Source: a virus. From it: 64,000 nucleotides of DNA. Where the stretch lies: positions 1 to 64,000 of the IMG/VR virus record IMGVR_UViG_3300021594_000641. One strand, written 5' to 3'. Under the pieces are notes generated by a model. The model was not told where the DNA came from. It saw only the letters and a list, made by a program, of their open reading frames with translations, and did not search any database. Shown piece by piece: positions 571 to 56,066 of the stretch (the stretch's first letter is position 1; the number at the start of each line of letters is the position of its first letter). Made by a program: the position numbers and the translations under genes.

Positions 571-1695
571 TTAAAATATGTACCTGATCTGGCAGTAAGG
601 TAGGAATAAAGAAAGTATGGACTTTAAGTTATCTACGGCTTCTGCCTTAAAATTATTCTTGTATCTAAGGTTGACCATGCCGTTTTGAGACAACTTTCTC
701 TGTTGTATAACAGGAAGTCCAAATTTATTTTTGGACTTGTCGTTCTCGTCATCCCAGTGCCTCCAAAGGTACTTCTCTTCAGCTTGAGGATGCCATTGCA
801 TGTTTAACTCATGCAACTTTTCGTTGTGAGTTAAAAATATTACTTCAGCTTTTAGTTGCTCCTTTGCCTTAGAAGACAAAACGTCGTCGAGCTGTGTAAA
901 CAAATCCGCGTAGTCTCTTTGCCATCCTTCATAGAGTATTACGGGGCTAAGGTTTATGTGTACCTCGTACCCAGCGTCTACGAAATCGTTTATAGCGGAT
1001 ATTCGTTCAGCTATTGAGCTGGTACGAACATCAACTACTTTAGAAACGCTCTCAGGCATGAGGCTAAACCTAACCCTAGTTTTTAGCTGAGGGTCATACC
1101 CAAGAAGTTGCCTGTTTACAAACTTAGTGGCAAAGCTGGCTTTGCCGTTGGGGGTGCTGACAAAAGACTTGATCAAATCTTTTACGTTATCGCTTACAAG
1201 ATCATCGACAGAACAATCATTGTTCTCTCCGATATCCCAAGTCCAATAAACGGGGTCACACTGGGTGTTTTCAGGCGTAAGTATTTTTGCGCCTAGCTTT
1301 TCACACTTACGCCTTATGTGCGCTATAACTTTGCATATATTAGCGAAAACGGCTATAGGGTTAGCGTAGCCTTTACGCCTAGCTACGTAACAATAAGAAC
1401 AAGCCATGGCGCAGCCAGAGCTGTGAGACGGGGCGATCCAGTCCGTAGACCTGGAGTTGGGCCTAGAAGCTATAGCAGTCTTTACGCCAAGAACAAGAGT
1501 TTGAGCTTTTGTCTTGTTCCACTCTCTAACCATGTCTGGGTTATTGTTGAGTTCTTCGATACGCCAATGGCTATCTACAAGTATTTTGTTTTCTACGTCT
1601 TTGTACTTGTTGAATATTTCTTTTCCCCTAGGAAAGTTTAAAGCTTTAGCGTCATAGTAAAGGGTGTTGATATTCAAAAGGCTAGCGGCATCCAT
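571..1695 (-). CDS. Spore photoproduct lyase family radical SAM protein
   Basis: A 374-residue protein with the radical SAM cluster motif CAMACSYC (C95, C99, C102), which would bind a 4Fe-4S cluster and S-adenosylmethionine. The preceding APSHSSG and following YCYVARRKGYANP, and a later WTWDIGENNDCSVDD segment, match my memory of the SPL-family group found outside spore formers. Spore photoproduct lyase splits the UV thymine dimer called spore photoproduct; whether this phage protein repairs DNA lesions is inferred. The start at 1695 is chosen for its AAGGAG site; an upstream start at 1731 lies in the terminator hairpin. It is bounded upstream by a strong terminator, so it may have its own promoter. 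Confidence 0.82.
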   Translation of the reverse strand: MDAASLLNINTLYYDAKALNFPRGKEIFNKYKDVENKILVDSHWRIEELNNNPDMVREWNKTKAQTLVLGVKTAIASRPNSRSTDWIAPSHSSGCAMACSYCYVARRKGYANPIAVFANICKVIAHIRRKCEKLGAKILTPENTQCDPVYWTWDIGENNDCSVDDLVSDNVKDLIKSFVSTPNGKASFATKFVNRQLLGYDPQLKTRVRFSLMPESVSKVVDVRTSSIAERISAINDFVDAGYEVHINLSPVILYEGWQRDYADLFTQLDDVLSSKAKEQLKAEVIFLTHNEKLHELNMQWHPQAEEKYLWRHWDDENDKSKNKFGLPVIQQRKLSQNGMVNLRYKNNFKAEAVDNLKSILSLFLPYCQIRYIF

Positions 1696-1729
1696 GTCAG
1701 TGTCTCCTTGTAAAAAATAAACAAAAAAC

Positions 1730-1765
1730 AAAAGGTTGGTACTTAGCGATAAGTACCAACCTTTT
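1730..1765 (-). terminator. Rho-independent terminator
   Basis: Perfect 15-bp inverted repeat (AAAAGGTTGGTACTT and its complement) with a 6-nt loop. Read on the minus strand it is followed by a T-rich tract, so it would end transcription of the gene at 1783-2262 just before the radical SAM gene. Its A/T-flanked symmetry could also work on the plus strand. Confidence 0.85.
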
Positions 1766-40175: not shown

Positions 40176-42410
40176 TCATGCCTTCTCAATGTGAAAATAA
40201 GAAAACAGGGCAGGGCTCTTGTCTGACCCTACGCCAGAAACACCAACAGCTTTACCGTAAAGTGACGTTTGCGTAGTGACGGTCATCAGCCTTTCTGCTG
40301 AGGATGTATCTTCAAGAGCTACATTTATTTTTGCAGACTCGCTGTCTTCTCCAGGCTTTACTGACACAGACAGCCTGTACCATTTGTTCTTTTCTATCTT
40401 TATTTCAGAGGACGAACTTATTGGGTAAGCAGACTCCCCCGATATCTTTGAAATATTTACCTTTCCGTTCTCTTGGTCTAGTTCTACAAAAATGAACTCG
40501 TTATTTTTTGTTTCCAAATTAAACTTACTGTTAAGGACTATTCCGGCGTTGCTGCCTTCTTCAGGTATCAATATTTCTGAAGATATTAGTAAATTACTTG
40601 AAGATGTGTAACCGCAGTCGTGCCACAATGCTGAATTGAAATAAGTTGTGCTCAAAGCTCTATAGACAGTCTCCATAGACAAGAACCCAGAGTCTATCTC
40701 TGGAGGCTTTACTGTGTTGAATTCTCCTGAGTCTATGTACCACTTATCCGCAGTGTCATTGTTGAAATACAAAGTCACAGGTAAATCTTGACAGTCAAGA
40801 GTTATTACAGAAACACTTTCGTCTAACAAAGCGGCAGGTGTTGGAGTTGTCGTAGGCTTAGGTTCCCACTCTATGCTCATCTGGCCAGCAGGGTCGCAAG
40901 GCTTGGTCATGTCTGCAATAGCCGGGCAGTCATTATGAGTTGATAGCCTGACAGAAAGAGAAGTGCTGTGGTCATTTATAGCGTAAAGCTCAACTTTAAA
41001 AGTGCTGTTAGATTTAAAAGCGGTTCCTCCAAATTTTTGATTTATTTCTGTACTCTTTCCGTATTCAAGTTTAACTTTTTTAGAAGTAAAAATAAGCCTT
41101 TCTTTTAATGAGTCAAACAAGACTCTGTAGACCTTAACGTATATACGAACTTTTTTATATATTTCCAGAAGAGTCCCAGACGGTAGACTTACTTTAAAAT
41201 AAAAAAACCAATTACTTACAGGTAAATTAAAATCATGAGGAATAGGGTTAGGATCGCAAGGCACGTTAGAACAAAACTGTAGAAAAGGGACATCCCCGCA
41301 ATCAGTGTATGTATGTACATACGTTTCTAACTTTATTTCTTTTTTGGGGGCTATAGCTTTTTCGTAATAGCTTGGACCTCCCGGACAACAACAGTCTGCC
41401 CCAGGAGGACAGTCGCATCCGTGATAGCTTACTCTGCCATATTCGCCTATATGCCCAAAAGGCCTACCGGGAAGAAGTGGATAATAATGTCTGACTAGTT
41501 CACACTGAGGGTCTTTACTTCCTCCAAAATCTCCTGCGTCATCTGGAAGTCTGTTGGTAGCCGCGCAAGTATCTATAAGACCCAGCGGGTAATCTACGGC
41601 TATTCCTCCTATTTCATTTTCATCTTCATCAACATATTTGGCTGTTTCAAAAGGTTCTTCAAATATTATGTTTATATTCCCTGCGCAGTCTGGCACAGCA
41701 GAGTTTATGAACTGAATACCTTCCTTGTTGCACGTGTTGCTTTCAGGTCTTCCAGAGCAACTACCTCTGTACTTATCAAATACGTTAGTGTTAGGGTCTT
41801 CTTTCAATGCGACGACTATGGCTTGCCTTTCTATCCCGTCTATTAACTTTGTTTGTTTTGTTATTGATACATTGGTTCCTTCCTTTAGCTCTATCAGACC
41901 TTTAAACAATATGGAGCTATTTACTTTAGACAAAGAAGTCACGGGAAAGTTAGAATAGAACCTAGAAGTTTTTGGATTCAAAGACGACTGGCTAGAACTA
42001 CTAAACCTTCCGCTATACTCAGTGTTGGTGCCTTCTCCAAATACTATCCAGCCGCCAACTCCTTCGCTGAGAGGATTGACAGAATAAGGCTTACCTATCT
42101 GAAGAGGTTTTTTTACAGTCACGGCACAAACAGGAGAATACGTTTCTACGGCTACAGGTTGATCTGTGTCTGAATAGTTGGCCGGATGCTTTACTGCCAC
42201 AAGAGTAACTGTTACTAAAGTTTTAGTTACGTTTACGCCGCTGACCATTACCAGTGAGCCTAAAGACTTCGGCAGCCTAAGATTTATATCTGTAATTATA
42301 GTGTCAGACATGTTGACGCCGTTGTCGTCAACGCCCGTGACTCCATCGTCCAGAGGATACTGCCTGGTCGAATTAAGGTTATACCAGTTGTTGTTTACAA
42401 CCGAACCCAT
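40176..42410 (-). CDS. Large fibre protein of the YPL/F family with LamG-like end, 744 aa
   Basis: ATG at 42410 with AAGGTG. First block NWYNLNSTRQYPLDDG; then a beta-rich middle with a Cys-rich stretch (CDCPPGADCCCPGGPSYYEK). The C-terminal 180 residues (WYIDSGEFN, LISSEILIPEEGSNAGIVLN, KWYRLSVSVKPGED) look like a LamG/concanavalin-type carbohydrate-binding jelly roll. It probably binds host sugars. Confidence 0.7.
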   Translation of the reverse strand: MGSVVNNNWYNLNSTRQYPLDDGVTGVDDNGVNMSDTIITDINLRLPKSLGSLVMVSGVNVTKTLVTVTLVAVKHPANYSDTDQPVAVETYSPVCAVTVKKPLQIGKPYSVNPLSEGVGGWIVFGEGTNTEYSGRFSSSSQSSLNPKTSRFYSNFPVTSLSKVNSSILFKGLIELKEGTNVSITKQTKLIDGIERQAIVVALKEDPNTNVFDKYRGSCSGRPESNTCNKEGIQFINSAVPDCAGNINIIFEEPFETAKYVDEDENEIGGIAVDYPLGLIDTCAATNRLPDDAGDFGGSKDPQCELVRHYYPLLPGRPFGHIGEYGRVSYHGCDCPPGADCCCPGGPSYYEKAIAPKKEIKLETYVHTYTDCGDVPFLQFCSNVPCDPNPIPHDFNLPVSNWFFYFKVSLPSGTLLEIYKKVRIYVKVYRVLFDSLKERLIFTSKKVKLEYGKSTEINQKFGGTAFKSNSTFKVELYAINDHSTSLSVRLSTHNDCPAIADMTKPCDPAGQMSIEWEPKPTTTPTPAALLDESVSVITLDCQDLPVTLYFNNDTADKWYIDSGEFNTVKPPEIDSGFLSMETVYRALSTTYFNSALWHDCGYTSSSNLLISSEILIPEEGSNAGIVLNSKFNLETKNNEFIFVELDQENGKVNISKISGESAYPISSSSEIKIEKNKWYRLSVSVKPGEDSESAKINVALEDTSSAERLMTVTTQTSLYGKAVGVSGVGSDKSPALFSYFHIEKA

Positions 42411-44176
42411 TACGGCACCTTGAGGTACGTAGTGTTTGAAATTATTCCTTTAGGTATCACAGTTCCGTTTGTTCTAGCTGTCAGCTGTATAGTCACAAAA
42501 TCAGAATCAGTTATAGGATGCCCAGGAGTGTGCGGTATTTTATAATCCGCGTACAGAGGACCGCTGTAAACTATTTCTTGTTTTCTTTTGTAATTAGTCG
42601 CGTAATAGTCCGTGTTGTTCTCATACTTCACATGCAATGACTTCATGTTCACAGAGTAAGGGTTAGGATCGTCGACTAGTTTTATTGAGAAGCTGCCTAT
42701 ATCTGTAAAGGTAGTACTGTTTAATGCCCCAGCAGCTCCTGTTGTGCTTTCAGACGGTATGTAGGTAACGATTCCCTTGTCGGCAAATCTTGCTTGATCT
42801 ATGAAACCTATCCAAGCTCCAAAGTTTCCTCCTATTAGTCCTATGAAAGCTTTAGTGACAAAGTTTCCGTTAGGAGCGTCTAGTAGAGGAATTTCTCCTA
42901 TCCAAGTAAGGTCTTGGCTCTTGTAGAAAGATATATCGAATTTTACTTGAGCCAACCTTTGTTGGTTTATGGCGTTCCACTCCACATAATGGTTTGGCCA
43001 CTCTCCTCCTATGGAATAGCTAGTAGGTTTGTTGCCTTTACCGTCATATATAAAAAGGCTGTCTGGATTAATTCTTCCAACCAAGTCAGTCGACCCTGAA
43101 AAGTCTAAGTTTACTTTTACTGTACTTTTGCAAGCTTCTGAAGAGTTACACAGACCAAAAGCCACTTTGGCGCAAACGCTGTCTTTGAACCTGTACGGTA
43201 TTACAGATATGCTCAAAGGGCTGTAGCTGTCTCTACATAATTTAAATTGCTCAAGCCTGGCCACATTAGACGAATGATTAGTCCGAACTCTAGCCGCTGC
43301 CTCGCTTATTGTTTTATATATCTCATGAACTTTCTTTAGAGCTCTATACGTGTTAACGAAATCGTCGCAAGAACAACAAGGCAGGCAGTTGTTTCTAAGG
43401 CTGAATCCGTTGTTGTTTCCTATAAGTATTTTCTTGTTTTCTCCTGTTCCAGATGTTGTGCCAGTTCTTGCTGTCCAAAAGCAGTCTTTAGCTTGAACCA
43501 CGAAATTCCCATTAGCGTCTGGTCCAACACCGTTTATTCTTTTCAACTCAGCGTAAGTATCTACGCATCCTGGGTATTGTCCTTGCCCGTACCCTGGCAC
43601 AGCTTCAATGTATACTTTGTTTACCCTAGCTTTTCCTGCGGTTGTTACTGTTTCGGTATTATCTAGTTTGAAGTTATAGCCTGCTACAAACTCAACAGCG
43701 TTTTTTATAGTGTTACCGTTTACTATCAGACTAGTTACAGTTTTTGGTAAAAGCTCAGAAACCCTTTCGTCCAATATCGCGTTTTCTGGCTCTATGAATG
43801 AAGGGTAAGAAATTACGTCTTCCAAGTCATGTTGGCCATTATGCTGCACTATTCTGCATATTGCGTCTTCTGCTTTCCACTCGTGAATTGTAAAACGGTC
43901 TGACCAAGTATCTACTCTATATTCAGTCTCATCTGATACGAATACCGTAGAGCCGTTAGCGTCTACTACCCAGACCTCCGCTCTTTCTTCTGAAGGAGGC
44001 TGAGTTATATTTAGTACTGTTTTTATTTTTAAAGGTAAGACCGCGCTTTCTACGTTATGACACAAGTACATATCGGCCAAAAGCCGTGGCATCTCTGCGA
44101 CTTCATGAATAAATGGAAAGTGCTGCCCGTAAGGGTTAACGGCTATTCCATATCCTCCTTCCGCAACGACGCCCAT
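42410..44176 (-). CDS. Putative tail-fibre/adhesin protein, 588 aa
   Basis: The ATG at 44176 is chosen because it sits 5 nt after GAGGAG and overlaps the HNH stop (TAATG); an upstream TTG at 44209 is less likely. It contains the block RINGVGPDANGNFVVQ shared with the YPL/F family and a Cys-rich segment (NCLPCCSCDDF). The C-terminal half (CKSTVKVNLDFSGSTDLVGRIN) looks like repeated beta sandwiches. Probable virion surface protein. Confidence 0.68.
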   Translation of the reverse strand: MGVVAEGGYGIAVNPYGQHFPFIHEVAEMPRLLADMYLCHNVESAVLPLKIKTVLNITQPPSEERAEVWVVDANGSTVFVSDETEYRVDTWSDRFTIHEWKAEDAICRIVQHNGQHDLEDVISYPSFIEPENAILDERVSELLPKTVTSLIVNGNTIKNAVEFVAGYNFKLDNTETVTTAGKARVNKVYIEAVPGYGQGQYPGCVDTYAELKRINGVGPDANGNFVVQAKDCFWTARTGTTSGTGENKKILIGNNNGFSLRNNCLPCCSCDDFVNTYRALKKVHEIYKTISEAAARVRTNHSSNVARLEQFKLCRDSYSPLSISVIPYRFKDSVCAKVAFGLCNSSEACKSTVKVNLDFSGSTDLVGRINPDSLFIYDGKGNKPTSYSIGGEWPNHYVEWNAINQQRLAQVKFDISFYKSQDLTWIGEIPLLDAPNGNFVTKAFIGLIGGNFGAWIGFIDQARFADKGIVTYIPSESTTGAAGALNSTTFTDIGSFSIKLVDDPNPYSVNMKSLHVKYENNTDYYATNYKRKQEIVYSGPLYADYKIPHTPGHPITDSDFVTIQLTARTNGTVIPKGIISNTTYLKVP

Positions 44177-44682
44177 TACTTCTCCTCGTTTGTATACCTC
44201 TTGAGCCAATTACAGTTAGCGCACAGCAGCTGATAGTTTTCAGGATTCTTGAGCACCTTTCTATACCTTTGCAGAGAGTTAGCATTCCTTCTTTCCTTGG
44301 AGCCTCCTCCGGCTATGTGGTCTATGTGCAGCACGTCTCTTAACGATATTCCGCAAGACTTGTTTGCACACTTTCCTCCCAACAGCTCTATGACTTTTGC
44401 TCTCTCTGCCGCGCTCCTTTCCCTGAACGACTTACTCTCTACCCTTCTTTTTTCTTGCCTAATTTTTTTAAAGTCTTCCAGCTGCGTTCTCTTTAAGATT
44501 GCCCTGCTCCTGTCTGACATGCCTCCTCTTCTTTTTGGTATTTTCTTTATGCTCAAGCATACTTTGCATGTCTTCTTGTAATTGATTACTCCCCTGTATG
44601 TAAAAGTATCAAACTCAGACAGCGGTTTTTCTTTATTGCATACATTACAACGGGGCGCTGGAACTTTCGCATCCTGTGTCAT
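44176..44682 (-). CDS. HNH endonuclease, 168 aa
   Basis: ATG at 44682 with GGGGAG. Residues 105-158 have the HNH order: CANKSC, HIDHIAGG (119-126) and YQLLCANCN (150-158), with zinc Cys pairs. A further CxxC pair (RCNVC, TCKVC) is at the N-terminus. Basic and helical, the usual build of phage homing HNH nucleases. It starts inside the last 38 nt of the upstream fibre gene and shares its stop with the next. Likely a mobile element in the tail operon. Confidence 0.85.
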   Translation of the reverse strand: MTQDAKVPAPRCNVCNKEKPLSEFDTFTYRGVINYKKTCKVCLSIKKIPKRRGGMSDRSRAILKRTQLEDFKKIRQEKRRVESKSFRERSAAERAKVIELLGGKCANKSCGISLRDVLHIDHIAGGGSKERRNANSLQRYRKVLKNPENYQLLCANCNWLKRYTNEEK

Positions 44683-45613
44683 TTAGCTTGCTCCCCAGGA
44701 CTGTGGTAGTCATGGCTGTCACGCTACCATCAAGCCTGCTGATGTAGTTACTTAGACTCAGGGCAGAATTTTGCAAAGACTGCAAGTCATTTGTTACGGC
44801 CTCCAGCTCTTGACAACCACAACAAGGTTTTGAGTAAAGATCGTTTACTTGAAGCCCGTTAACTTTTGCGTCTAGGCTTACATTCGTGTCAGTCTGGAGA
44901 GTAAAGTTTCCTTCTGGAGTAGGCGCTATTCCGTTTATTGTTCTTATGCAAGGAGATTGAGATGCTTCATCGGTACAGACGCAGTCTTTTGTAAGACCCT
45001 CTCCGCTAACGGCATCAAATCTTATTTTTGGAGCATCTGTTCCTTGCTGAGAATAGGTTAAGGATACATTCGTTCCAGCTATAAGTTCTATTGCCCCAGT
45101 AAGCTTTTCTGATCTGTCGTTTCCATTCACTAAAGTTATTGAAGTGACGCCTCTTATTATTGGCCGGATACAGTCTGTATCTAGCTTACCGCCAGAGTAG
45201 TCAAAAAAGTATTGCCCAGCAGGCAGAGCTTTTATTTCTTCTAGTTTTCCAAAAACTATTTTACCAACAGAGTCTGAATAACTATCTATTCCTACTAACG
45301 CGTAGCTCTTGTTTTCTGTATGCGCGGAAAAAGCCATAGACGTGCTGGCTACGGCGGTTACTGAATTGTTGCTTCCTAAGTATCCCAAAACCAAAGTAAG
45401 CCCTGTGCTGAACATGGACATGGAGTAAATAAAGAAATTTTCAGGAACTACGTTTACGCCGGCATTTACAGGAAAGTATAAAGATAAAATTATCGTGTCT
45501 GGGATACGAAATGACGAGCTCTGATCTAGCTTTGTGGCGCTGTCAGCTAAAGGATAACTTCTTAGGGCATTGGCATTTAGCCACTCTAAACCCCATACTG
45601 CTGGTGATGGCAT
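44645..45613 (-). CDS. Putative fibre protein of the YPL/F family, 322 aa
   Basis: ATG at 45613 with AAGGTG. Opens WLNANALRSYPLADSA, then IPDTIILSLYFP, and later RTINGIAPTPEGNFTLQTDTNV, all blocks repeated in its paralogues. The end carries a CCGCQELEAVTNDLQSLQN coiled coil. Virion surface protein by context. Confidence 0.7.
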   Translation of the reverse strand: MPSPAVWGLEWLNANALRSYPLADSATKLDQSSSFRIPDTIILSLYFPVNAGVNVVPENFFIYSMSMFSTGLTLVLGYLGSNNSVTAVASTSMAFSAHTENKSYALVGIDSYSDSVGKIVFGKLEEIKALPAGQYFFDYSGGKLDTDCIRPIIRGVTSITLVNGNDRSEKLTGAIELIAGTNVSLTYSQQGTDAPKIRFDAVSGEGLTKDCVCTDEASQSPCIRTINGIAPTPEGNFTLQTDTNVSLDAKVNGLQVNDLYSKPCCGCQELEAVTNDLQSLQNSALSLSNYISRLDGSVTAMTTTVLGSKLNDTGCESSSAPL

Positions 45614-45621
45614 TTGGCACC

Positions 45622-47418
45622 TTAAGCTGAGTACAACACGGCTACGGCATCAATTATTCCTATCTCTCCCAAATACCCGTCTGTAGCACTTCTCTCTACA
45701 GTAAACAGTACTTCAGCCGACTCTGTTACCACAATAGCCGCAGTTTCAACTTCCTTGTATTGTCCTGAGGTTATTGTCACAGAGACGCTGCCGTGAATAG
45801 TGTCAGAGGTTGGAAGAGCCGTGGCAGCCACAGGCCTGGGCAGTAGCCTATAAGATACATTTAGACTTGGAGAGCCTGAAGCGTCTCCATATAGCCACAG
45901 TCTTAGTTTTATCCTAGGGTTGGTTGGAAAGTTGCTAGCGCCAGGCATTCTAAACTTATACCTGACTGATGATGTTTTTTCGGCTTGAAACCCTAGGTAC
46001 ATTATTTCAGATTCATATCTTTCCTTAGCGTCTATTACTCTGACTACTTGAGGAGTTATGAATCTTTCAAGGCCTTCAACATCAGCACGTATGCTGACTA
46101 CCCCTTGGTGAACTGTGTCTGAGTCTCCATTTACAAAAGAGTGAGTGCTGGTGATGACCACAGAGTCGTCAGCGGCTATTAGCCCTTCTGTGACGTAACC
46201 CCTTTTAAACTTATTGTTAACTATGTTTTTTAGCGCCAAGCTACCAGATACATTTTCCTGGTCTATCTGATAAGTGCTATCAAACTTTAATATTACGTCG
46301 CCAGCGGTGACGTTGTTTCCGTCTTGATCTACTACCCTTATTGGAGTGGCGTCGTTGTAAGGCCTTATGCTTGTTACTACAGAGCTGTCGTTACCGTATC
46401 TAACTTTAGAAAAATAAAGTACAAGCTTGCTCTCAGCGTTTCTTGGACACTCTGGGTAACTTGTAGCGCTTTGAACAGAAGAAGAGCTGTAGTATTCTTG
46501 CCACGGAGCCTCTCCGTTACAGTTGCTCATCCACCATATGCCATTCCTGTCGACAATAACTAAACCGTTAGGTCCGGTAGGCACCTCTAATCCAAAATTT
46601 TGTAACGCTGCTCCTATCTCTAAATCCATAAAAACAGTCAACGACGCACTAGATTCAGGAAGAGGCGGCCAGAGTGGAGCCAGCTTTGTGTCCTTATCTA
46701 GGTTATAACCGAAAGCCGATCCGTACGGAGCCAGGCCATTAAAAACTTCATGGTCTGCTGGCAGCCAACCCATTAAGTCAGGGTCTGGAGATGTGATTAC
46801 AGCCCTATCCGCTCCATTAACGTTTTGTACGGTAGCCGTACCGGCTGGCTTCATGTAAAGCTCAGCCTTGTAATGAACATGCGCCTCTAAAAGATTTTTA
46901 GATTGAATGCTTACGTAAACAACGCCATTTCCGTCAGCGTACAGTACTGATATTGATAAGCCTGGAGACTGTTTTAGTATTTTTCCAGCTTCCTGTCCTG
47001 ATAAATAATACCTGCCTGGAGTTACAGACCCTACTACCGCTGGAGATATGTCTAACGATACTTTTCCTGAAAGAACAAGCGTGGCAACAGTAGCTGAAGC
47101 CTTGCTGTACACAACTCCAACAACTTCAGTTCTGGAGGTTGTTTCGAACGAGCCGTTTGTTGTTGAGTAGACCTCAGCCAGAGCTTTCTCAAACCTCTGG
47201 TTGGCCACATTCCAATAAACAGCGTTGCCTACAACAACGGTCTCGTCCACGGCCACATCAAACGCAAACGTAGCTTGTCCGTTGTCTATGGCGTCTATTC
47301 TATCTTTAAGATATACAGTCCTATCTGCCAAAGACCTGTCTGGACGCCCAGAGATATTTGCGTCTACGCGTTCGCCGTCTTGAATAAATTTTACGTTGTC
47401 TGTCCAGTTTCCAGCCAT
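45622..47418 (-). CDS. Putative tail-fibre protein, 598 aa
   Basis: ATG at 47418 with GAGGTGA. N-terminus GNWTDNVKFIQDGERVDANISGRPDRSLADR is of the kind seen in tail-fibre proteins, followed by beta-rich repeats and a region of Ser, Val and Asp repeats. No enzymatic motif. At this point in the operon it is likely one of the trimeric fibre proteins. Confidence 0.72.
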   Translation of the reverse strand: MAGNWTDNVKFIQDGERVDANISGRPDRSLADRTVYLKDRIDAIDNGQATFAFDVAVDETVVVGNAVYWNVANQRFEKALAEVYSTTNGSFETTSRTEVVGVVYSKASATVATLVLSGKVSLDISPAVVGSVTPGRYYLSGQEAGKILKQSPGLSISVLYADGNGVVYVSIQSKNLLEAHVHYKAELYMKPAGTATVQNVNGADRAVITSPDPDLMGWLPADHEVFNGLAPYGSAFGYNLDKDTKLAPLWPPLPESSASLTVFMDLEIGAALQNFGLEVPTGPNGLVIVDRNGIWWMSNCNGEAPWQEYYSSSSVQSATSYPECPRNAESKLVLYFSKVRYGNDSSVVTSIRPYNDATPIRVVDQDGNNVTAGDVILKFDSTYQIDQENVSGSLALKNIVNNKFKRGYVTEGLIAADDSVVITSTHSFVNGDSDTVHQGVVSIRADVEGLERFITPQVVRVIDAKERYESEIMYLGFQAEKTSSVRYKFRMPGASNFPTNPRIKLRLWLYGDASGSPSLNVSYRLLPRPVAATALPTSDTIHGSVSVTITSGQYKEVETAAIVVTESAEVLFTVERSATDGYLGEIGIIDAVAVLYSA

Positions 47419-48006: not shown

Positions 48007-49503
48007 TCACAGCAAATTTCCCCGCACAACGCGTGCGACTATTGTGTCTGACACATCGGTTGTGGTTATTTCTGTTTCAAAGGTTGTTCCCATACCTGTG
48101 AACGACCCTATCTCTTCAGTATCCTCGTAATCAGCTTGCAGCACTTCTTCTTCAATGTCTTGCAAGTCTATTAGAAGAAACATGGTTGTGTGAGGCGGTA
48201 TCAGGTTTCTTAAATAAGTAATATTTTCTATTCCAGCGAAACCTGGCCTAACCGATCCTGCCTTTATTTTTACCAAAAAAGCGCCGTTTCTTAAAACGTT
48301 TTCGGCCAAAAATTTCAAAGGGTTGATTACTGAAGGTACGTTAGTGGGTCCTGGCTCTCCGTATTTCACAGGCCTATTATCGAATGCGTCTGCAAGGGTC
48401 ATGGCCATAGCCAAGCCCCTCTTGTGCGTGTCATCCCAGAAAGCTTCCACATCAAAAGGATGCCCGCCAAGATAAAAGCTCATCTTGGCTTTTCCATTAC
48501 TGTCGTACTCAAAATCTACCGGCACTTCTTCGTTATTAAATCCTATGTCGCCTATGTATTGTATTCCCATGTATCTTTTTGAAAGGTTTAGACCCTTCAA
48601 AGATTCTGGCACCTCTCCTCTGTTAAACTCATGCACTAAAATTCCATCAGTCATTTCCTGGTCTACTCTTAACGAGTCACCGATAGAAACAACGGCTTGA
48701 GAATTTTTGTTAAACTTGTAAACATTTTTATTTGTAATGACAAGTAAGTTATTTCTGTCGTAAGTTATGTCTTCTACGGTTTCATTTCCTTTTGCCAGAG
48801 GTATGCCGGTAGTGGCGGCTATCCCGTCCAAAGTTTTTCCCATGGACGTGCCTAAAACCATTGAATCGTATACGTTGTTCAACAAATCTTTGTATGGCTG
48901 ACTAGACTTAGCCCACAGTCCTATAACGTAGCCAAAATGGCTGTACAGGTATTCTTTGTCTATTCTTGGCAATTGAAGCCATAAAACTATCTCTTCGTCT
49001 CCTTCTGTGGTTTGATGCGCAAAACTGTCATTATTGAAAGGGTTCTCAGCGAAGAATAAACGATGATTGGCTGAGTCTATATAAAAATCAAGGTTTCTAA
49101 ATAGAACAGTTGAAGGGCTGGATATTCTATTTGTGATTATGGGGCAATCTACTATTTCTTCAGGCAGAGGATAAAAAAAAGAAAATCCTGAAGACCTTCT
49201 TCCGTAACTGGCAGCGGTTGTTCCGTAATAGCTTTCTTCGCCATAATTATTAGCCAGGCCGGATATTACTGACTTTTTCATAGTCAGCTCTAACCAGTAT
49301 TCTTTTCTAAATACTGGAATGTCCAATCTGCTTCTGCAATCTATGGCTTCTTGAAGCCTTTCAAAAGTTTGCTTTGTTAGATTGCATCGTCCTTTTAATG
49401 CTTCGGCCAGGTAGTCGTTGCCGGTATAAACTTCCTCCCAGAATCCTCCAAGGAGTCGGAGGATCTGACCCTTGTCATCCAGCTGGGTAGGAAAATTTAT
49501 CAT
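48007..49503 (-). CDS. Putative baseplate/tail protein, 498 aa
   Basis: ATG at 49503 with AGGTAAA at 11 nt. Mixed alpha/beta; opening residues (LGGFWEEVYTGNDYLAEALKG) look like a helical docking segment. A later block GFSFFYPLPEEIVDCPII is beta-rich. Position after the protease and the J-like gene fits a baseplate-to-fibre connector. The function is inferred by location. Confidence 0.62.
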   Translation of the reverse strand: MINFPTQLDDKGQILRLLGGFWEEVYTGNDYLAEALKGRCNLTKQTFERLQEAIDCRSRLDIPVFRKEYWLELTMKKSVISGLANNYGEESYYGTTAASYGRRSSGFSFFYPLPEEIVDCPIITNRISSPSTVLFRNLDFYIDSANHRLFFAENPFNNDSFAHQTTEGDEEIVLWLQLPRIDKEYLYSHFGYVIGLWAKSSQPYKDLLNNVYDSMVLGTSMGKTLDGIAATTGIPLAKGNETVEDITYDRNNLLVITNKNVYKFNKNSQAVVSIGDSLRVDQEMTDGILVHEFNRGEVPESLKGLNLSKRYMGIQYIGDIGFNNEEVPVDFEYDSNGKAKMSFYLGGHPFDVEAFWDDTHKRGLAMAMTLADAFDNRPVKYGEPGPTNVPSVINPLKFLAENVLRNGAFLVKIKAGSVRPGFAGIENITYLRNLIPPHTTMFLLIDLQDIEEEVLQADYEDTEEIGSFTGMGTTFETEITTTDVSDTIVARVVRGNLL

Positions 49504-50591
49504 TATGCATGTTTACCTGGCTTAGCGTTAATATCCATGGCCAGCTCTACTATAACCCTCGAGCCTTCACCAAAGAGTTGCCTAAATTTAAGCTTGCTGG
49601 CGCTTACAAAGTCTTTTTCTTCTATGACTACTTGAGTGCAGTTTTTCTTTTTTACTAAAGCTACTTTAGGCTCTTTTAAAACCAGCCTCTTAGGGTTTAA
49701 AAGACCCCAGCCATAGTCATTGTCAAATCCGTTTGTTCCGGCATCTGTAGCGCTGGCTTTGACTGCTTCTATGAAATCTCTTGAAGACTTCAAAGAGCGA
49801 GACTTTTTCTTCCGGTCATACTCTAAAGCCAAAGCGGCTACGCCTGCAACAAAAGGAGTAGCCATAGAAGTACCAGAAAGTTTGGCGTAGTTCTTAGGAG
49901 GGTATGCTGACAAGATGTCTACCCCAGGGGCCGCTACGTCTACTTGCGGACCTCTGCTTGAGAACTTAGCTATTCTGTTGTTAGAGTCTACAGCGGCTAC
50001 GGATAGAACCGTCTCATACCTTGCCGGGTATCCAACAGTTTCAGGGTCAGGGCCTTCGTTACCAGCAGCTGCGATTAGGATAACTCCTTTACTAGCCGCG
50101 TATTTCAAAGCTGCTTCAATGTCAGGGCAAGAAGACGGAGAGCCAAAACTCATAGAAATTATGTCAGCCTTTTGAGACACGGCCCACTTGATACCAGCGA
50201 CTATATTTTTGGTAGAGCCTCCTCCTGAGTCAGACAAAACTTTTCCAACTATAAGGCAGGCATCAGGAGCCACTCCTACTATTCCTACCCCATTCTTCTT
50301 AGCCGCGATTACTCCACAGCAGTGTGTGCCGTGTCCGTTTGAATCTCCAGGGCCTACAGGACTTTTTGTAAAATCTTTATGGGCGCATATCTGTTCTTTT
50401 AAATCTGGATGCAGCATGGCGCATCCGGTGTCCAGAACGGCAACCTTTATACCTTTGCCTGTGGCGTGCTGCCACAATTCAGGTATGCCAAAAGCCGTTA
50501 AACTCCAGTCCATAGTTTCTGAGCACGTCGATACGAAATGCTCAACCGAAAAGGATGGAATTTTAAAATCTGGAACACCGGGCCTAGCCAT
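49503..50591 (-). CDS. Subtilisin-like serine protease (S8), 362 aa
   Basis: The full catalytic triad is present: VAVLDTG (D54), NGHGTHCCG (H87) and SGTSMATPFVAG (S242), with AAGNEG (N178) as oxyanion residue. Length is typical of a mature subtilase domain plus a C-terminal 60-residue tail. There is no signal peptide and no obvious pro-domain, so it is made in the cytoplasm. Its place between a holin-like gene and baseplate genes suggests processing of a tail protein or action on the host during entry; both are inferences. Its stop overlaps the next start (TAATG). Confidence 0.9.
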   Translation of the reverse strand: MARPGVPDFKIPSFSVEHFVSTCSETMDWSLTAFGIPELWQHATGKGIKVAVLDTGCAMLHPDLKEQICAHKDFTKSPVGPGDSNGHGTHCCGVIAAKKNGVGIVGVAPDACLIVGKVLSDSGGGSTKNIVAGIKWAVSQKADIISMSFGSPSSCPDIEAALKYAASKGVILIAAAGNEGPDPETVGYPARYETVLSVAAVDSNNRIAKFSSRGPQVDVAAPGVDILSAYPPKNYAKLSGTSMATPFVAGVAALALEYDRKKKSRSLKSSRDFIEAVKASATDAGTNGFDNDYGWGLLNPKRLVLKEPKVALVKKKNCTQVVIEEKDFVSASKLKFRQLFGEGSRVIVELAMDINAKPGKHA

Positions 50592-50998: not shown

Positions 50999-52651
50999 TT
51001 ACGCTAATGAAGTATCAGAGTTTTTAATGTAAATACCTATGTCGTCTGGACTTAGAATAAAAACAACAGTTTTAGCCGATATCATGTTTTCATGATCTTC
51101 AGGAATTATTAGTGATTCAAAGCTTCTTAAGTATTTTTTTGTTAAGTCAGACTTTTGTATTGCGCCAAACATTTCTATAGCGCTAACCGTTTGGTTTTGA
51201 GCCAAATAACTATGAATGGTGGACTGGAGTATTGAAGCCGATAGTTTTCCGCAAAACCCCAGCTTGTTAACTCTATTAGCTAAAGCGTTTTTAATTGCTG
51301 ATTCGTCTATGTTAGAGTCGGTTGACTTTTTAAATATTGTAAAAGATAACTTTAGATCGCACGGTATTGCAGCTTTTACTAGAACGTCTCCTCCGGCAGG
51401 CCTAACATCACGACTGCTCAAAAAACTCTGTATGTTCTGTAAAAGATTCATTCCCCGAGCGTATATTGAATATTCAGCAGTAGCGCCTTCTGTTAAGCCA
51501 GGCGCAGTCTCTAAGTCTATAAACCTTATAATTGCAGTTTGATAAGGAGAATAGGCAGCCTCCTTGCTATTAACTATGTCAGGCACAAAAGAAGAACCGT
51601 CTTCGGATATGTCGTAACCTCTGATGTCTTCGTACACCCCTAAACCTGTTTCTGAAGCACTGTCTACCACAGTTGCTTTTATTATTTTTTCTATGTTGTA
51701 AAACCCAGGCACGTCATTCCTGGATATGGATACTTGCCACAAGCCTCCGCCGCCTTCTCTTCCTATTAGAGTAGCCGTCTTTGTTATTTTTCTTGAGGTT
51801 GGCAGCTGTTGGCTTCTTATATAAACATCAAGTCTGTTGCCAGTAGCCGTGGGAAGAATGCTGTGGTAGCGAATTTGTTCTGGATCACCAAATCCTATAG
51901 TCGATACGTCTAGAACCGTTTTGAAAGAAGTGTTTTCTTTTATGCAAGATTCTATTGTTGCCCTGTTTGACAAATCCCTAGCAGATATCCCTGTCTGAAG
52001 TCTCTTTACAAAATCTGAGTTAGACTCATAATCTGAACCGCCTGAAAAGTCAGACTCTGCATAGGCAGTTAAGAAGTAAGGTATAGCCGAGTCTGACTCT
52101 AAAGAAGTGTTTCTTTTTATGTTTGCCGTTACAGAATTAGTAGTAGACACGGCGTCGATCACATAATAGTATGTGCCGTCTCCAACAGGCTTTATAAGCC
52201 TGTCGTTGAAATTAACTACCTGGTCTGCAGAAGTCCTAGCGAAGAAAGACTGCAGAGGCGCATAAGTGTTACCCAGAGATGAAAAGGTATTTGATGTAGA
52301 CACACTAGACGGTACTAGCGCGCTTATCACTATGACTATTTTTCCTGAAGCCGGAGAACCTTCAAACCTTACTGCTCTAAAGTTTGAGGCCAGTTGATCA
52401 ACAACGTCGTCAACAGCGAGAGTTGGGTCGTTGTTTATAGCTAGAAGAGAGCCTGACTTCCTAAGCCTGTCAGCATACTCGTCCTGAGCTGTTTGCAGTA
52501 TTGCCTCAAAATGAAAAAGGATATCGTGCAGAACGCCTCTCTTGCTGTCTATGCTTGGGGCGTACTCAGTAATTTTTTGCGCTATGTAAGCGTGCGCCTG
52601 GTTTACGGCATCTGAGTTTAAAGTTGTCAGATCAGGTAAAGTTATAGCCAT
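50999..52651 (-). CDS. Baseplate J-like / gp6-like wedge protein, 550 aa
   Basis: ATG at 52651 overlaps the previous stop, with CAGGTAT. The N-terminal helix (SDAVNQAHAYIAQKITEYAPSID, TAQDEYADRLRKSG) and the segment SDFSGGSDYESNSDFVKRL, AIESC-type helix and a C-terminal ENMISAKTVVFILSP fit baseplate J proteins, which build the ring of contractile tails. Its partner gp25-like gene lies directly upstream. Confidence 0.8.
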   Translation of the reverse strand: MAITLPDLTTLNSDAVNQAHAYIAQKITEYAPSIDSKRGVLHDILFHFEAILQTAQDEYADRLRKSGSLLAINNDPTLAVDDVVDQLASNFRAVRFEGSPASGKIVIVISALVPSSVSTSNTFSSLGNTYAPLQSFFARTSADQVVNFNDRLIKPVGDGTYYYVIDAVSTTNSVTANIKRNTSLESDSAIPYFLTAYAESDFSGGSDYESNSDFVKRLQTGISARDLSNRATIESCIKENTSFKTVLDVSTIGFGDPEQIRYHSILPTATGNRLDVYIRSQQLPTSRKITKTATLIGREGGGGLWQVSISRNDVPGFYNIEKIIKATVVDSASETGLGVYEDIRGYDISEDGSSFVPDIVNSKEAAYSPYQTAIIRFIDLETAPGLTEGATAEYSIYARGMNLLQNIQSFLSSRDVRPAGGDVLVKAAIPCDLKLSFTIFKKSTDSNIDESAIKNALANRVNKLGFCGKLSASILQSTIHSYLAQNQTVSAIEMFGAIQKSDLTKKYLRSFESLIIPEDHENMISAKTVVFILSPDDIGIYIKNSDTSLA

Positions 52652-53571: not shown

Positions 53572-54405
53572 TCACATGAGTCTTATGTCTGATTGCTTGT
53601 CTAGTTCAGCTTGAATCTTTTTCTTTCTAATGCTTACAGCTGCTGGCGTCACTCTAAGTTTTTTAGCTATAGCTTCATTAGACAACACAGGACTTCCGAA
53701 CATTCCAAAAGCGCCTTCCATAATTATTTTATCAGTATCAGATGCTCCATAATAAACTAACTGCCTCCACCCATCCGCGCTGCTGGTATCCTTCATTAGC
53801 CTTACGCCTGGATCGTTGAAGTCTTCGCTTTCTGATCCGGCCATAGGCTTCAAAACTGTTCCTTCGCTAGAAGGCATCCTTAACTTTCTTACGTACTCAA
53901 TTCTTTTTGGAGAAAGCCCTGTCTTGTCAGCCAGCTCACTTAAAGACGGGTGTCTTCCCAATTCTTCTTTTAATTCATCCTCTGCTTTGAAAAGACCTAC
54001 GTAGTCTAACTGCACTTGTTCAGGAATACTTATTATCTGATTGCTTTGCAGAGTAAATCTTTTCAATCCTTGCAGCTGATTAAACACAAATGTTTTTAAC
54101 TTAGTCTTTGACGGGTCGTACCTGTGAAGAGAGTCTATGACTATTTGTTTAGCCTTGCTCCCAACCATAGGGTTTGACGAGCTTCCAGCGTAAGTTTTAA
54201 CGGCTGTATCTATTACGGGTTTCAAAGCCTTTAAAACTCTGTCGTTGTTAGCTATGTCAGGATTTCTTTTCCAATCTTCATATATTTTATTATATTCAGG
54301 CTCAAGGCTTATAGTCGGCTGAGCGGGCGCAGTTCCAGGAGGCCTAGGTCCGCCTGTTGGCTGACTAGGGTTACCTACTCCAGGTATGTTGTACATCCCA
54401 GGCAT
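53572..54405 (-). CDS. Phage RNA polymerase sigma factor-like protein, 277 aa
   Basis: The ATG at 54405 (MPGMYNIPGV) has GGATGG and leaves no overlap. Residues about 85-120 (YDPSKTKLKTFVFNQLQGLKRF) resemble the end of region 2, 126-175 (SIPEQV, LSELADKTGLSPKRI) match region 3, and about 240-275 (VLSNEAIAKKLRVTPAAVSIRKKKI) region 4 with its HTH. This is the order of sigma-70 family factors. Embedded in the tail gene operon, it probably redirects host RNA polymerase to late phage promoters. The N-terminal 30 residues are Pro/Gly-rich. Its promoter recognition is unknown. Confidence 0.85.
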   Translation of the reverse strand: MPGMYNIPGVGNPSQPTGGPRPPGTAPAQPTISLEPEYNKIYEDWKRNPDIANNDRVLKALKPVIDTAVKTYAGSSSNPMVGSKAKQIVIDSLHRYDPSKTKLKTFVFNQLQGLKRFTLQSNQIISIPEQVQLDYVGLFKAEDELKEELGRHPSLSELADKTGLSPKRIEYVRKLRMPSSEGTVLKPMAGSESEDFNDPGVRLMKDTSSADGWRQLVYYGASDTDKIIMEGAFGMFGSPVLSNEAIAKKLRVTPAAVSIRKKKIQAELDKQSDIRLM

Positions 54406-54416
54406 AGGTCCATCCT

Positions 54417-56066
54417 TTAAACAAGAGAAGTACCGCTCCAAACCGTATCATAAAGCGGATTGGAATCAAAAACTAGATCCGTGTCGTTATTCTCTGATTC
54501 TGTCCTTACGCTACTTAAAGAAAATGAAGTCATTGCCGTAGCTGAAGTTGAATCAAGGATAAGATTCACTTCATTGACCATACCTAGAAAGTCATTAACG
54601 TTAGTAGTATCGTTTTGTATGCCTCTTGCTCCTGAAGCTTCAATCTTAACTATGGAGCCTGGAGATATATCCATTCTAAACTTTCCAGAAAAGGTGCCGG
54701 CTCTAAATTTAAGAACTTCATTGCCATAAGACAGTTTGGCGAACCTAGCGGCTGTAGACTCTATAGCTTGTAGGTTATTTTTTATTCCATCGTTATTTAT
54801 TTCAGGAGCAGACCCGTCTATTCTAACTTGACCAGGTCCTTGTTTAGTTGCTTCAGCTGGATCTACTATGTTGTCTAGCCAAGTAGGTCTCTTGTGTATT
54901 ACGAAAGTTCCTGTTCCCTTATCTGATTTAAAGTGAGCAGCTCCTAATAACCTTTCTCCTAAAAAAGCTCCAGCTTCGCTAACGTGGCTTACTGGCATTA
55001 GCACGCCTCGTATAAGCCTAGGCATTGATGTAGTTATATCAAAGTTAGTTATTTCTGTAGCTTTTACGGTTATAAGAGAATTTTTATAATTTGGAAGTTT
55101 GGGCGTCAGTACAGCTCTAGACACTAGAGGAACTACATTGAACATGAAAGAAGCGCCCGCAGACACCAGTATGTCCCAAAAAGTTTGACCGTCTATTCCG
55201 CCTATGGCTGTTTTCTTTAAAGTGTTTACTATATTTATTTGAATTTGTTGAGACGTAGCAGTTTTTGAAGATAAGCTCAAAGCCACATATCCGTCTTCTC
55301 CTGGCTTTAAAAATCTTTCTACAGCTTTAAGCCCTATGTTGTTTACATCCGTATTAGCGGGAACGGCAAACAACGCGGCTAAGTCAGGAGGTAAGCTGCT
55401 AGTAGCTGTATAAAAGTCGTTTTGACCGATTATTACACTTCCAGCTATTCCATTGAAAAACCTATACAGGCCCTTAGCCCATAAGTCAGAAGGGGTCTCG
55501 CTTATTGAAAAATACTTGTCAGCCCTGTTACTGAGCACTCCAGCGCTTGAAGCTCTTGTTTCACAAGGGAATAAATGAGTGAAAGGAGTTCCAGGCTGTA
55601 GTTCTGGCGTAAGAGCTGTAGAAGCTGTCATGTCAGACAGCCAGTGTTCTAAAGATATAGTGTATTCTACGCTAGCAGAGCCTCTTCTATACCCAGCTCC
55701 AGAAGTATAACCTTCAAAAGCAACAAAATATCCTATGTCAGTTATCTTGTCTTTTGTAACGTCTAAACCAGCTGACTCGTATCCCTTATTCAGTTTTACA
55801 AAAACTTTAGCTTTTTTCTTGTAAGTAAGGTTTTGAAATACCTCATGTATCTTTGCCGTCTTACTGGGGTTCGACATGTCCAAACCCATGGACACGCCGC
55901 ATGACGCTGTAGGTATTCCGTTCAAAGAATAATTAGCCGTAAACCTTATTATGTCTAATTGAACTAAGTTAGGCGCTGGAGCAGCTCCGCCTATGGGATA
56001 GTCAGCCAAGTCTATTTCTAAGTAAGCTTCAAATAGTACTTGTTGAATTGCTTGATTACTTGACAT
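54417..56066 (-). CDS. Baseplate hub-like/tail structural protein, 549 aa
   Basis: ATG at 56066 overlaps the previous stop. Beta-rich with an N-terminal barrel-like start (FEAYLEIDLADYPIGG, VQLDIIRFTANYSLNG) and hub-type features such as GFSAYYIS-like strands. Phage hub proteins (gp27/D type) have this build, but no specific motif confirms it. Neighbours (spike, sigma factor) fit a hub position. Confidence 0.6.
   Translation of the reverse strand: MSSNQAIQQVLFEAYLEIDLADYPIGGAAPAPNLVQLDIIRFTANYSLNGIPTASCGVSMGLDMSNPSKTAKIHEVFQNLTYKKKAKVFVKLNKGYESAGLDVTKDKITDIGYFVAFEGYTSGAGYRRGSASVEYTISLEHWLSDMTASTALTPELQPGTPFTHLFPCETRASSAGVLSNRADKYFSISETPSDLWAKGLYRFFNGIAGSVIIGQNDFYTATSSLPPDLAALFAVPANTDVNNIGLKAVERFLKPGEDGYVALSLSSKTATSQQIQINIVNTLKKTAIGGIDGQTFWDILVSAGASFMFNVVPLVSRAVLTPKLPNYKNSLITVKATEITNFDITTSMPRLIRGVLMPVSHVSEAGAFLGERLLGAAHFKSDKGTGTFVIHKRPTWLDNIVDPAEATKQGPGQVRIDGSAPEINNDGIKNNLQAIESTAARFAKLSYGNEVLKFRAGTFSGKFRMDISPGSIVKIEASGARGIQNDTTNVNDFLGMVNEVNLILDSTSATAMTSFSLSSVRTESENNDTDLVFDSNPLYDTVWSGTSLV

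What the first reader, a model, noticed from the sequence alone, without database searches (positions are those of the whole stretch)
49503..50591. Complete subtilisin-like protease inside the baseplate genes, without signal peptide
The triad D54/H87/S242 and oxyanion N178 are intact. Subtilases are usually secreted; here the protein is made in the cytoplasm and lies between a hydrophobic-tail small protein and tail genes. It could be a virion-borne protease that processes a tail protein or helps penetration.
Basis: partly seen in the sequence, partly recalled or inferred. Interest (0 to 1): 0.65.

Follow-up and report, generated by a model that had tools for sequence, protein, structure and literature searches.

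The report
Conserved subtilisin-type protease in tail genes
A large uncultured lake phage carries an intact, intracellular-type subtilisin gene locked in the middle of its tail-baseplate genes, a position kept in three distant relatives, which suggests a dedicated late-infection job for this protease, possibly together with a second, papain-like protease.

Summary
Observation confirmed. Window 49503-50591(-) encodes a 362-aa peptidase S8 with D54/H87/N178/S242 intact and no signal peptide, inside a baseplate operon. The record is a 189,675-base IMG/VR virus with no close relative among sequenced phages. New evidence: (1) three diverged relatives keep the subtilase in the same slot, between a small protein with a hydrophobic C-terminus and a ~495-aa baseplate-region protein. 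The four subtilases form one clade under purifying selection, so the position is old and not a chance insertion. (2) The missing signal peptide is ordinary: it belongs with hundreds of phage subtilases built like intracellular subtilisins, with a short N-terminal pro-peptide around a LIPY-like motif. (3) Two relatives carry a papain-like protease and a signal-peptide protein beside it. The window phage has both 67 kb away, and a separate 60-kb phage group carries a small-protein/S8/signal-peptide-protein/C1 cassette outside tail genes. (4) C1 relatives point to Planctomycetota hosts. "Virion-borne" is possible but unproven; a lysis-type envelope protease fits at least as well.

The parts
49503..50591 (-). 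Subtilisin-type protease (peptidase S8), 362 aa
   Evidence: Pfam PF00082 4.6e-63; PHROG 3677 6.2e-90; model pLDDT 90.6; PDB hits all subtilisins incl. intracellular ones
50544..50567 (-). Pro-peptide motif F9-K-I-P-S-F-S-V16, equivalent of the LIPY/F inhibitory motif of intracellular subtilisins (degenerate)
   Evidence: Column-matched to LLPY/LPPY/LIPY of other phage S8; model shows beta bridge 9-10, break, strand 15-20; motif role from PMC6220982
50430..50432 (-). Catalytic Asp54 codon
   Evidence: invariant in 32 sequences
50331..50333 (-). Catalytic His87 codon
   Evidence: invariant
50058..50060 (-). Oxyanion Asn178 codon
   Evidence: invariant
49866..49868 (-). Catalytic Ser242 codon
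   Evidence: invariant
49527..49655 (-). C-terminal extension (residues 313-355), predicted small strand-helix-strand unit
   Evidence: strands 318-324 and 345-351 around helix 330-340, pLDDT 73-79; extension also in L015, L027, L029
50602..50922 (-). 106-aa partner protein: helical, hydrophobic C-terminal segment IPLWLLPVIVKLITIWL; directly upstream of S8 throughout the clade
   Evidence: 62% id in L015, 31-36% in L027/L029, same slot; predicted helices 13-24, 31-49, 67-80, 91-104
48007..49503 (-). Downstream 498-aa protein of the baseplate cluster, start overlaps S8 stop (TAATG)
   Evidence: homologue follows S8 in L015, L027, L029
50999..52651 (-). Baseplate J-like protein
   Evidence: Pfam PF04865 1.5e-8, phrog_6 baseplate wedge 1.7e-13; syntenic in L015, L027, L029
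52651..53127 (-). Small baseplate protein
   Evidence: phrog_975 baseplate protein 3.6e-4; syntenic
45622..47418 (-). Tail-fibre-like 598-aa protein (N-terminal FIQDGERVDA..SGRPDR motif)
   Evidence: motif recalled, no database hit; syntenic, 40-52% id

Best explanation
The gene encodes a phage protease of intracellular-subtilisin type. Shown: an intact S8 enzyme, a short N-terminal extension with a degenerate LIPY-like motif, a small hydrophobic-tailed partner gene upstream, and a slot in the baseplate operon kept since the common ancestor of four diverged large phages. Inferred: it is made late, with the tail proteins, as a zymogen whose pro-peptide blocks the active site, then is activated and acts on host envelope proteins. 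The most likely route is that of an endolysin without signal peptide: it accumulates in the cytoplasm and reaches the envelope when the membrane is breached, perhaps with help from the 106-aa protein. It would work beside the phage's papain-like protease, against a host with a protein-rich wall, most likely a planctomycete.
For: Conserved slot in L015, L027=L028 and L029 although neighbours are only 27-60% identical. The four S8 form one clade (99/81), dN/dS about 0.08 with saturated dS. Pro-peptide motif aligned across 32 S8 and an ISP-like N-terminus in the model; ISP pro-peptide inhibition is published (PMC6220982). A small protein with hydrophobic C-terminus stands directly upstream in this clade and in unrelated phage groups. 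A papain-like C1 with invariant Q/C/H/N and a signal-peptide protein lie beside S8 in L027/L029; the window phage has both at G000 117091-119266. In about 60 C1 loci of a 60-kb group the order small protein-S8-SP protein-C1 is constant wherever the upstream DNA is present. No M23, NlpC/P60, SLT, Amidase_2, Phage_lysozyme, M15_4 or CHAP was found in the four phages. Host hint: strong C1 relatives in about 13 of 392 planctomycete genomes versus only the seeded one of 396 Bacteroidota, and the C1s of the window phage and L029 are closest to planctomycete copies among the sequences compared. Planctomycete walls contain cysteine-rich YTV proteins (PMC8567305).
Against: Planctomycetes also have peptidoglycan (PMC4432640, title and abstract), and a diverged lysin could have escaped the seven family searches. 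The strict ISP motif is not met in the window protein. The small partners of the different phage groups are not detectably homologous, and the window partner's hydrophobic stretch is short for a membrane span. Host assignment is indirect. Neither late timing nor membrane passage was tested. Baseplate placement fits a virion protein equally well.
Confidence: 0.38

Rival explanations
1. Virion-borne protease: S8 is incorporated in the baseplate and digests host surface protein, or processes a tail protein, during entry or assembly.
For: Fixed position between Baseplate_J and the next baseplate-region gene in four phages; S8 is among the best conserved proteins of the cluster; it overlaps the next gene by one base; C1 also joins the cluster in L027/L029.
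Against: Related enzymes in other phages lie outside structural modules. The ISP-type pro-peptide suggests control of a free cytoplasmic enzyme. No tail-binding domain is recognised; the C-terminal unit is small.
Confidence: 0.3
2. Cytoplasmic takeover protease: like bacterial intracellular subtilisins it degrades host or superfluous proteins for amino acids or takeover; its place in the tail operon only sets expression level and time.
For: ISP-like architecture without signal peptide; phage homologues often next to nucleotide-metabolism genes; the best PDB sequence hit is an intracellular serine protease.
Against: Does not explain the constant late-operon slot or the recurring secreted or membrane partners: trypsin-like protein with N-terminal hydrophobic segment upstream in L054/L062, C1 plus signal-peptide protein elsewhere.
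Confidence: 0.22
3. Head or tail maturation protease that cleaves structural precursors inside the infected cell.
For: Late structural operon; no confident other prohead protease (only a weak match at G000 76780-78258, phrog_18299 E=0.0032).
Against: Not next to capsid or portal genes; known prohead proteases are of other folds (S21/S77/S78, own knowledge); the weak head-protease match is another candidate for that job.
Confidence: 0.07

Closest known systems
Intracellular subtilisin proteases (ISP; B. clausii 2X8J/2WV7, Planococcus ISP PMC6220982)
   Same: S8 catalytic domain, no signal peptide, no large I9 pro-domain, short N-terminal extension with a hydrophobic-Pro-aromatic motif about 40 residues before the catalytic Asp
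   Different: Strict motif [LVI]-[IFLV]-P-[YFH] is not matched (window KIPSF); extra C-terminal strand-helix-strand unit; phage baseplate operon; dimer and metal sites untested
Phage subtilases of PHROG 3677 (Moorella phage MTATph1, Bacillus phages SP-15, Goe3, FADO)
   Same: Phage S8 of the same intracellular build, 39-42% identity over the alignment for MTATph1, SP-15 and Goe3
   Different: Those lie with replication, nucleotide-metabolism or early genes, not in the baseplate cluster; the window clade forms its own branch
Small protein-S8-SP protein-C1 protease cassette of 60-kb phages (e.g. L095, L088; Pirellulaceae MAG contig L106)
   Same: Small protein with hydrophobic C-terminus directly before an S8; a papain-like C1 and a signal-peptide protein in the same genome
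   Different: Cassette is contiguous and follows helicase/HNH genes there; in the window phage C1 and SP protein are 67 kb from S8; S8 clades are separate

Membership tests
Peptidase S8 (subtilases) | Asp/His/Ser triad with oxyanion Asn in canonical motifs | tested here: met
Peptidase S8 (subtilases) | Subtilisin fold | tested here: met
   pLDDT 90.6; Foldseek E down to 1.4e-32 to subtilisins
Intracellular subtilisin proteases (ISP) | No secretion signal and no I9-type pro-domain; short N-terminal extension | tested here: met
   54 residues up to and including the catalytic Asp, no hydrophobic stretch
Intracellular subtilisin proteases (ISP) | LIPY/F motif [LVI]-[IFLV]-P-[YFH] | tested here: not met
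   window F-K-I-P-S-F; aligned to but not matching the strict pattern; so called ISP-like, not a strict ISP
Intracellular subtilisin proteases (ISP) | Pro-peptide bound across active site, dimer, Na/Ca site | not testable with these tools
   model suggests a beta bridge at 9-10 and strand 15-20; coordinates not available
PHROG 3677 phage protease | Profile match | tested here: met
   6.2e-90 over residues 20-312
Virion (baseplate) protease | Gene fixed in baseplate cluster | tested here: met
   four diverged phages
Virion (baseplate) protease | Protein present in virions | not testable with these tools
   needs proteomics
Holin-endolysin type lysis cassette | Small membrane protein adjacent to a signal-less enzyme | tested here: inconclusive
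   106-aa protein with 17-residue hydrophobic C-terminus; model helix 91-104; no holin family match
Prohead protease | Prohead-protease fold and capsid-module location | tested here: not met
   subtilisin fold, baseplate location

The most novel reading that the evidence does not exclude
Phages of bacteria with protein-rich walls (Planctomycetota) use a protease pair, an intracellular-type subtilisin zymogen plus a papain-like enzyme, with small hydrophobic and signal-peptide partners, in place of or beside peptidoglycan lysins. In the window's clade the subtilisin became a permanent part of the baseplate operon.
Probability: 0.2. Interest if true: 0.8.

Novelty: new variant of a known kind. 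Interest (0 to 1): 0.5.

Why it matters
A clade in which one is permanently wired into the baseplate operon, with a second protease in the same phage, gives a concrete and testable system for what such enzymes do. If the protease pair attacks the envelope of planctomycetes, it would be a route of phage lysis or entry that relies on proteolysis rather than murein cleavage. One search of the paper library by name found no planctomycete-phage study.

Tried and rejected
DNA near-matches and tblastn of neighbouring baseplate proteins in sequenced phages: none. C1 in sequenced phages: none. Idea that the S8 slot is a chance insertion (moron): rejected by synteny and the tree. Idea that the small hydrophobic partners are one family: no profile similarity, and fold search of the 106-aa model gave nothing. 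Baseplate_J search of 50 S8-bearing viral records: 5 carry it, and only this clade has it beside S8; in L040 and L046 it lies tens of kb away, so the baseplate link is specific to this clade. Host signature through the 278-aa signal-peptide protein: no match in 7 genomes. Planctomycete chromosomal C1 loci carry no S8 or matches to other window-phage proteins nearby, but one (L208) has a lipoprotein-like SP protein and small membrane proteins next to C1. Literature for a virion-borne subtilase: none found in the held library.

Full report
OBSERVATION. D54, H87, N178 and S242 lie in VLDTG, NGHGTH, AAAGNEG and SGTSMATP. Pfam Peptidase_S8 matches over its full length at 4.6e-63, PHROG 3677 'protease' at 6.2e-90. 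An AlphaFold2 model from 32 related phage sequences has mean pLDDT 90.6 and the top Foldseek matches are subtilisins. No signal peptide is visible in the sequence. The gene lies in one run of minus-strand genes: Baseplate_J (50999-52651), a 106-aa protein, S8, a 498-aa protein whose ATG overlaps the S8 stop by one base, a 200-aa protein and a tail-fibre-like 598-aa protein.

THE VIRUS. The window is part of a 189,675-base IMG/VR virus record. Neither the DNA nor the baseplate proteins tested match any of 50,697 phage records. A 65-kb IMG/VR contig is the same virus, identical over more than 20 kb except one mismatch or short gap and one 144-base in-frame indel in the tail-fibre-like gene. That the sample is from a lake is my recollection of the IMG sample number, not a tool result.

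CONSERVED SLOT. L015 (59.7-kb contig) keeps the whole order, with S8 at 57.6%, the 106-aa protein at 62% and Baseplate_J at 57% identity. L027 (identical to L028; 190 kb) and L029 (181 kb) are a second subclade: neighbours 27-60% identical, S8 52-53%, again between the small hydrophobic-tailed protein and the 498-aa homologue. A maximum-likelihood tree puts the four S8 in one clade (99/81) split into the two expected pairs. Between L027 and L029 the S8 dN/dS is about 0.08, with saturated dS, so only the direction is meaningful. The gene is therefore an old, selected part of this cluster. Among 50 S8-bearing viral records searched for Baseplate_J, 5 had it and only this clade has it beside S8.

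WHAT KIND OF SUBTILISIN. The best sequence match in the PDB is an intracellular serine protease, and other intracellular subtilisins are among the hits. Most phage S8 collected (76 inspected) begin with a short extension holding a motif such as LLPY, LPPY or LIPY about 40 residues before the catalytic Asp. This resembles the LIPY/F pro-peptide motif [LVI]-[IFLV]-P-[YFH], which binds across and inhibits the active site in bacterial ISPs (PMC6220982). The window protein has F-K-I-P-S-F in the aligned columns: hydrophobic, Pro, aromatic, but the strict pattern is not met. The model has a beta bridge at 9-10, a break, and a strand at 15-20, resembling the ISP description. So the protein is ISP-like, probably a zymogen (inference). 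This explains the missing signal peptide without special assumptions.

A SECOND PROTEASE. In L027 and L029 a block between Baseplate_J and S8 encodes a 257-aa protein with a signal peptide (by eye), a 311-aa papain-like protein and small proteins. The papain relationship rests on Pfam PF00112 for the window phage's own copy (1.2e-7; only 0.013 for L029) and on invariant Gln67, Cys73, His227 and Asn247 in 11 sequences. The window phage has its copy at G000 117091-118002 and a 278-aa signal-peptide protein at 118430-119266. In an unrelated group of about 60-kb phages the order small hydrophobic-tailed protein, S8, signal-peptide protein, C1 is constant. Of 86 C1 loci, 60 have S8 close upstream. 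All loci at 51% identity or more to the L095 C1 have it except two at a contig end; those at 46% or less, apart from one truncated at a contig end, have none (near-duplicates are included). There the cassette follows helicase and HNH genes, not tail genes. In two other large phages tested, a trypsin-like protein with an N-terminal hydrophobic segment (PF00089) stands directly before S8. Several phage groups thus pair an intracellular-type subtilisin with a second protease.

HOST. A scan of 84,980 species genomes with the C1 alignment gave 9 contigs, 4 of them from Planctomycetota MAGs. In 392 planctomycete genomes 17 matched, about 14 of them strongly (E below 1e-13), including the seeded one; in 396 Bacteroidota only the seeded genome matched strongly. 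The C1s of the window phage and L029 are closer to planctomycete chromosomal copies than to the 60-kb phage copies; the comparison set was limited to the sequences held here. Planctomycetota is the likely host phylum, not a proven one. Their walls contain cysteine-rich YTV proteins (PMC8567305), but they also have peptidoglycan (PMC4432640).

MECHANISM. Shown: intact enzyme, conserved position in a tail operon, small partner, second protease in the genome. Inferred: zymogen control, late expression, envelope target. Seven murein-hydrolase families (M23, NlpC/P60, SLT, Amidase_2, phage lysozyme, M15_4, CHAP) gave no match in the four phages; that is suggestive only, since diverged lysins would be missed. 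Lysis genes within tail operons are known from other phages such as P2 (own knowledge), so the slot does not distinguish a lysis role from a virion role. I rate envelope or lysis proteolysis 0.38, virion-borne 0.30, cytoplasmic takeover 0.22, structural maturation 0.07.

NOVELTY. The enzyme is a new member of a known phage protease family. New here are its fixed place in a baseplate operon of a large-phage clade without sequenced relatives, and the recurring two-protease theme. I rate it a new variant of a known kind.

Noticed in passing
53572-54441 (-): A sigma-factor-like protein (Sigma70_r3 1.9e-6) sits inside the baseplate cluster and is kept there in L015, L027 and L029 (42-59% id).
   Followed up: partly
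45622-47418 (-): Tail-fibre-like gene differs from the otherwise almost identical contig IMGVR_UViG_3300008116_000449 by one in-frame 144-base segment (48 codons) near its 5' end.
   Followed up: partly
42410-44209 and 44645-45613 (-): Two neighbouring structural-region proteins share a 220-aa stretch at 24.5% identity, a possible tandem duplication, also seen in L015.
   Followed up: no
G000 117091-118002 and 118430-119266 (L008): Papain-like C1 protease and a signal-peptide protein with a proline-rich linker, next to each other outside the window.
   Followed up: partly
L054, L062 and about 15 further loci: A trypsin-like protein with N-terminal hydrophobic segment lies directly upstream of an intracellular-type subtilisin in large phages (two confirmed by Pfam, others by eye).
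   Followed up: partly
L208 9551-10860 (planctomycete chromosome): C1 protease next to a lipoprotein-like helical protein and small membrane proteins in a bacterial chromosome without recognised phage genes.
   Followed up: partly
L030 9704-10969: A phage subtilase with an N-terminal membrane anchor or signal, unlike the rest of the set.
   Followed up: no
L008 2228-5611 (+): Ribonucleotide reductase-like gene interrupted by an intein (Intein_splicing 3.1e-12).
   Followed up: no
571-1731 (-): Spore photoproduct lyase-like radical SAM gene in the phage (Pfam 1.9e-37).
   Followed up: no
L007 7003-8907 (-): Protein with a match to phage RNA polymerase beta subunit (phrog_3015 3.4e-8).
   Followed up: no
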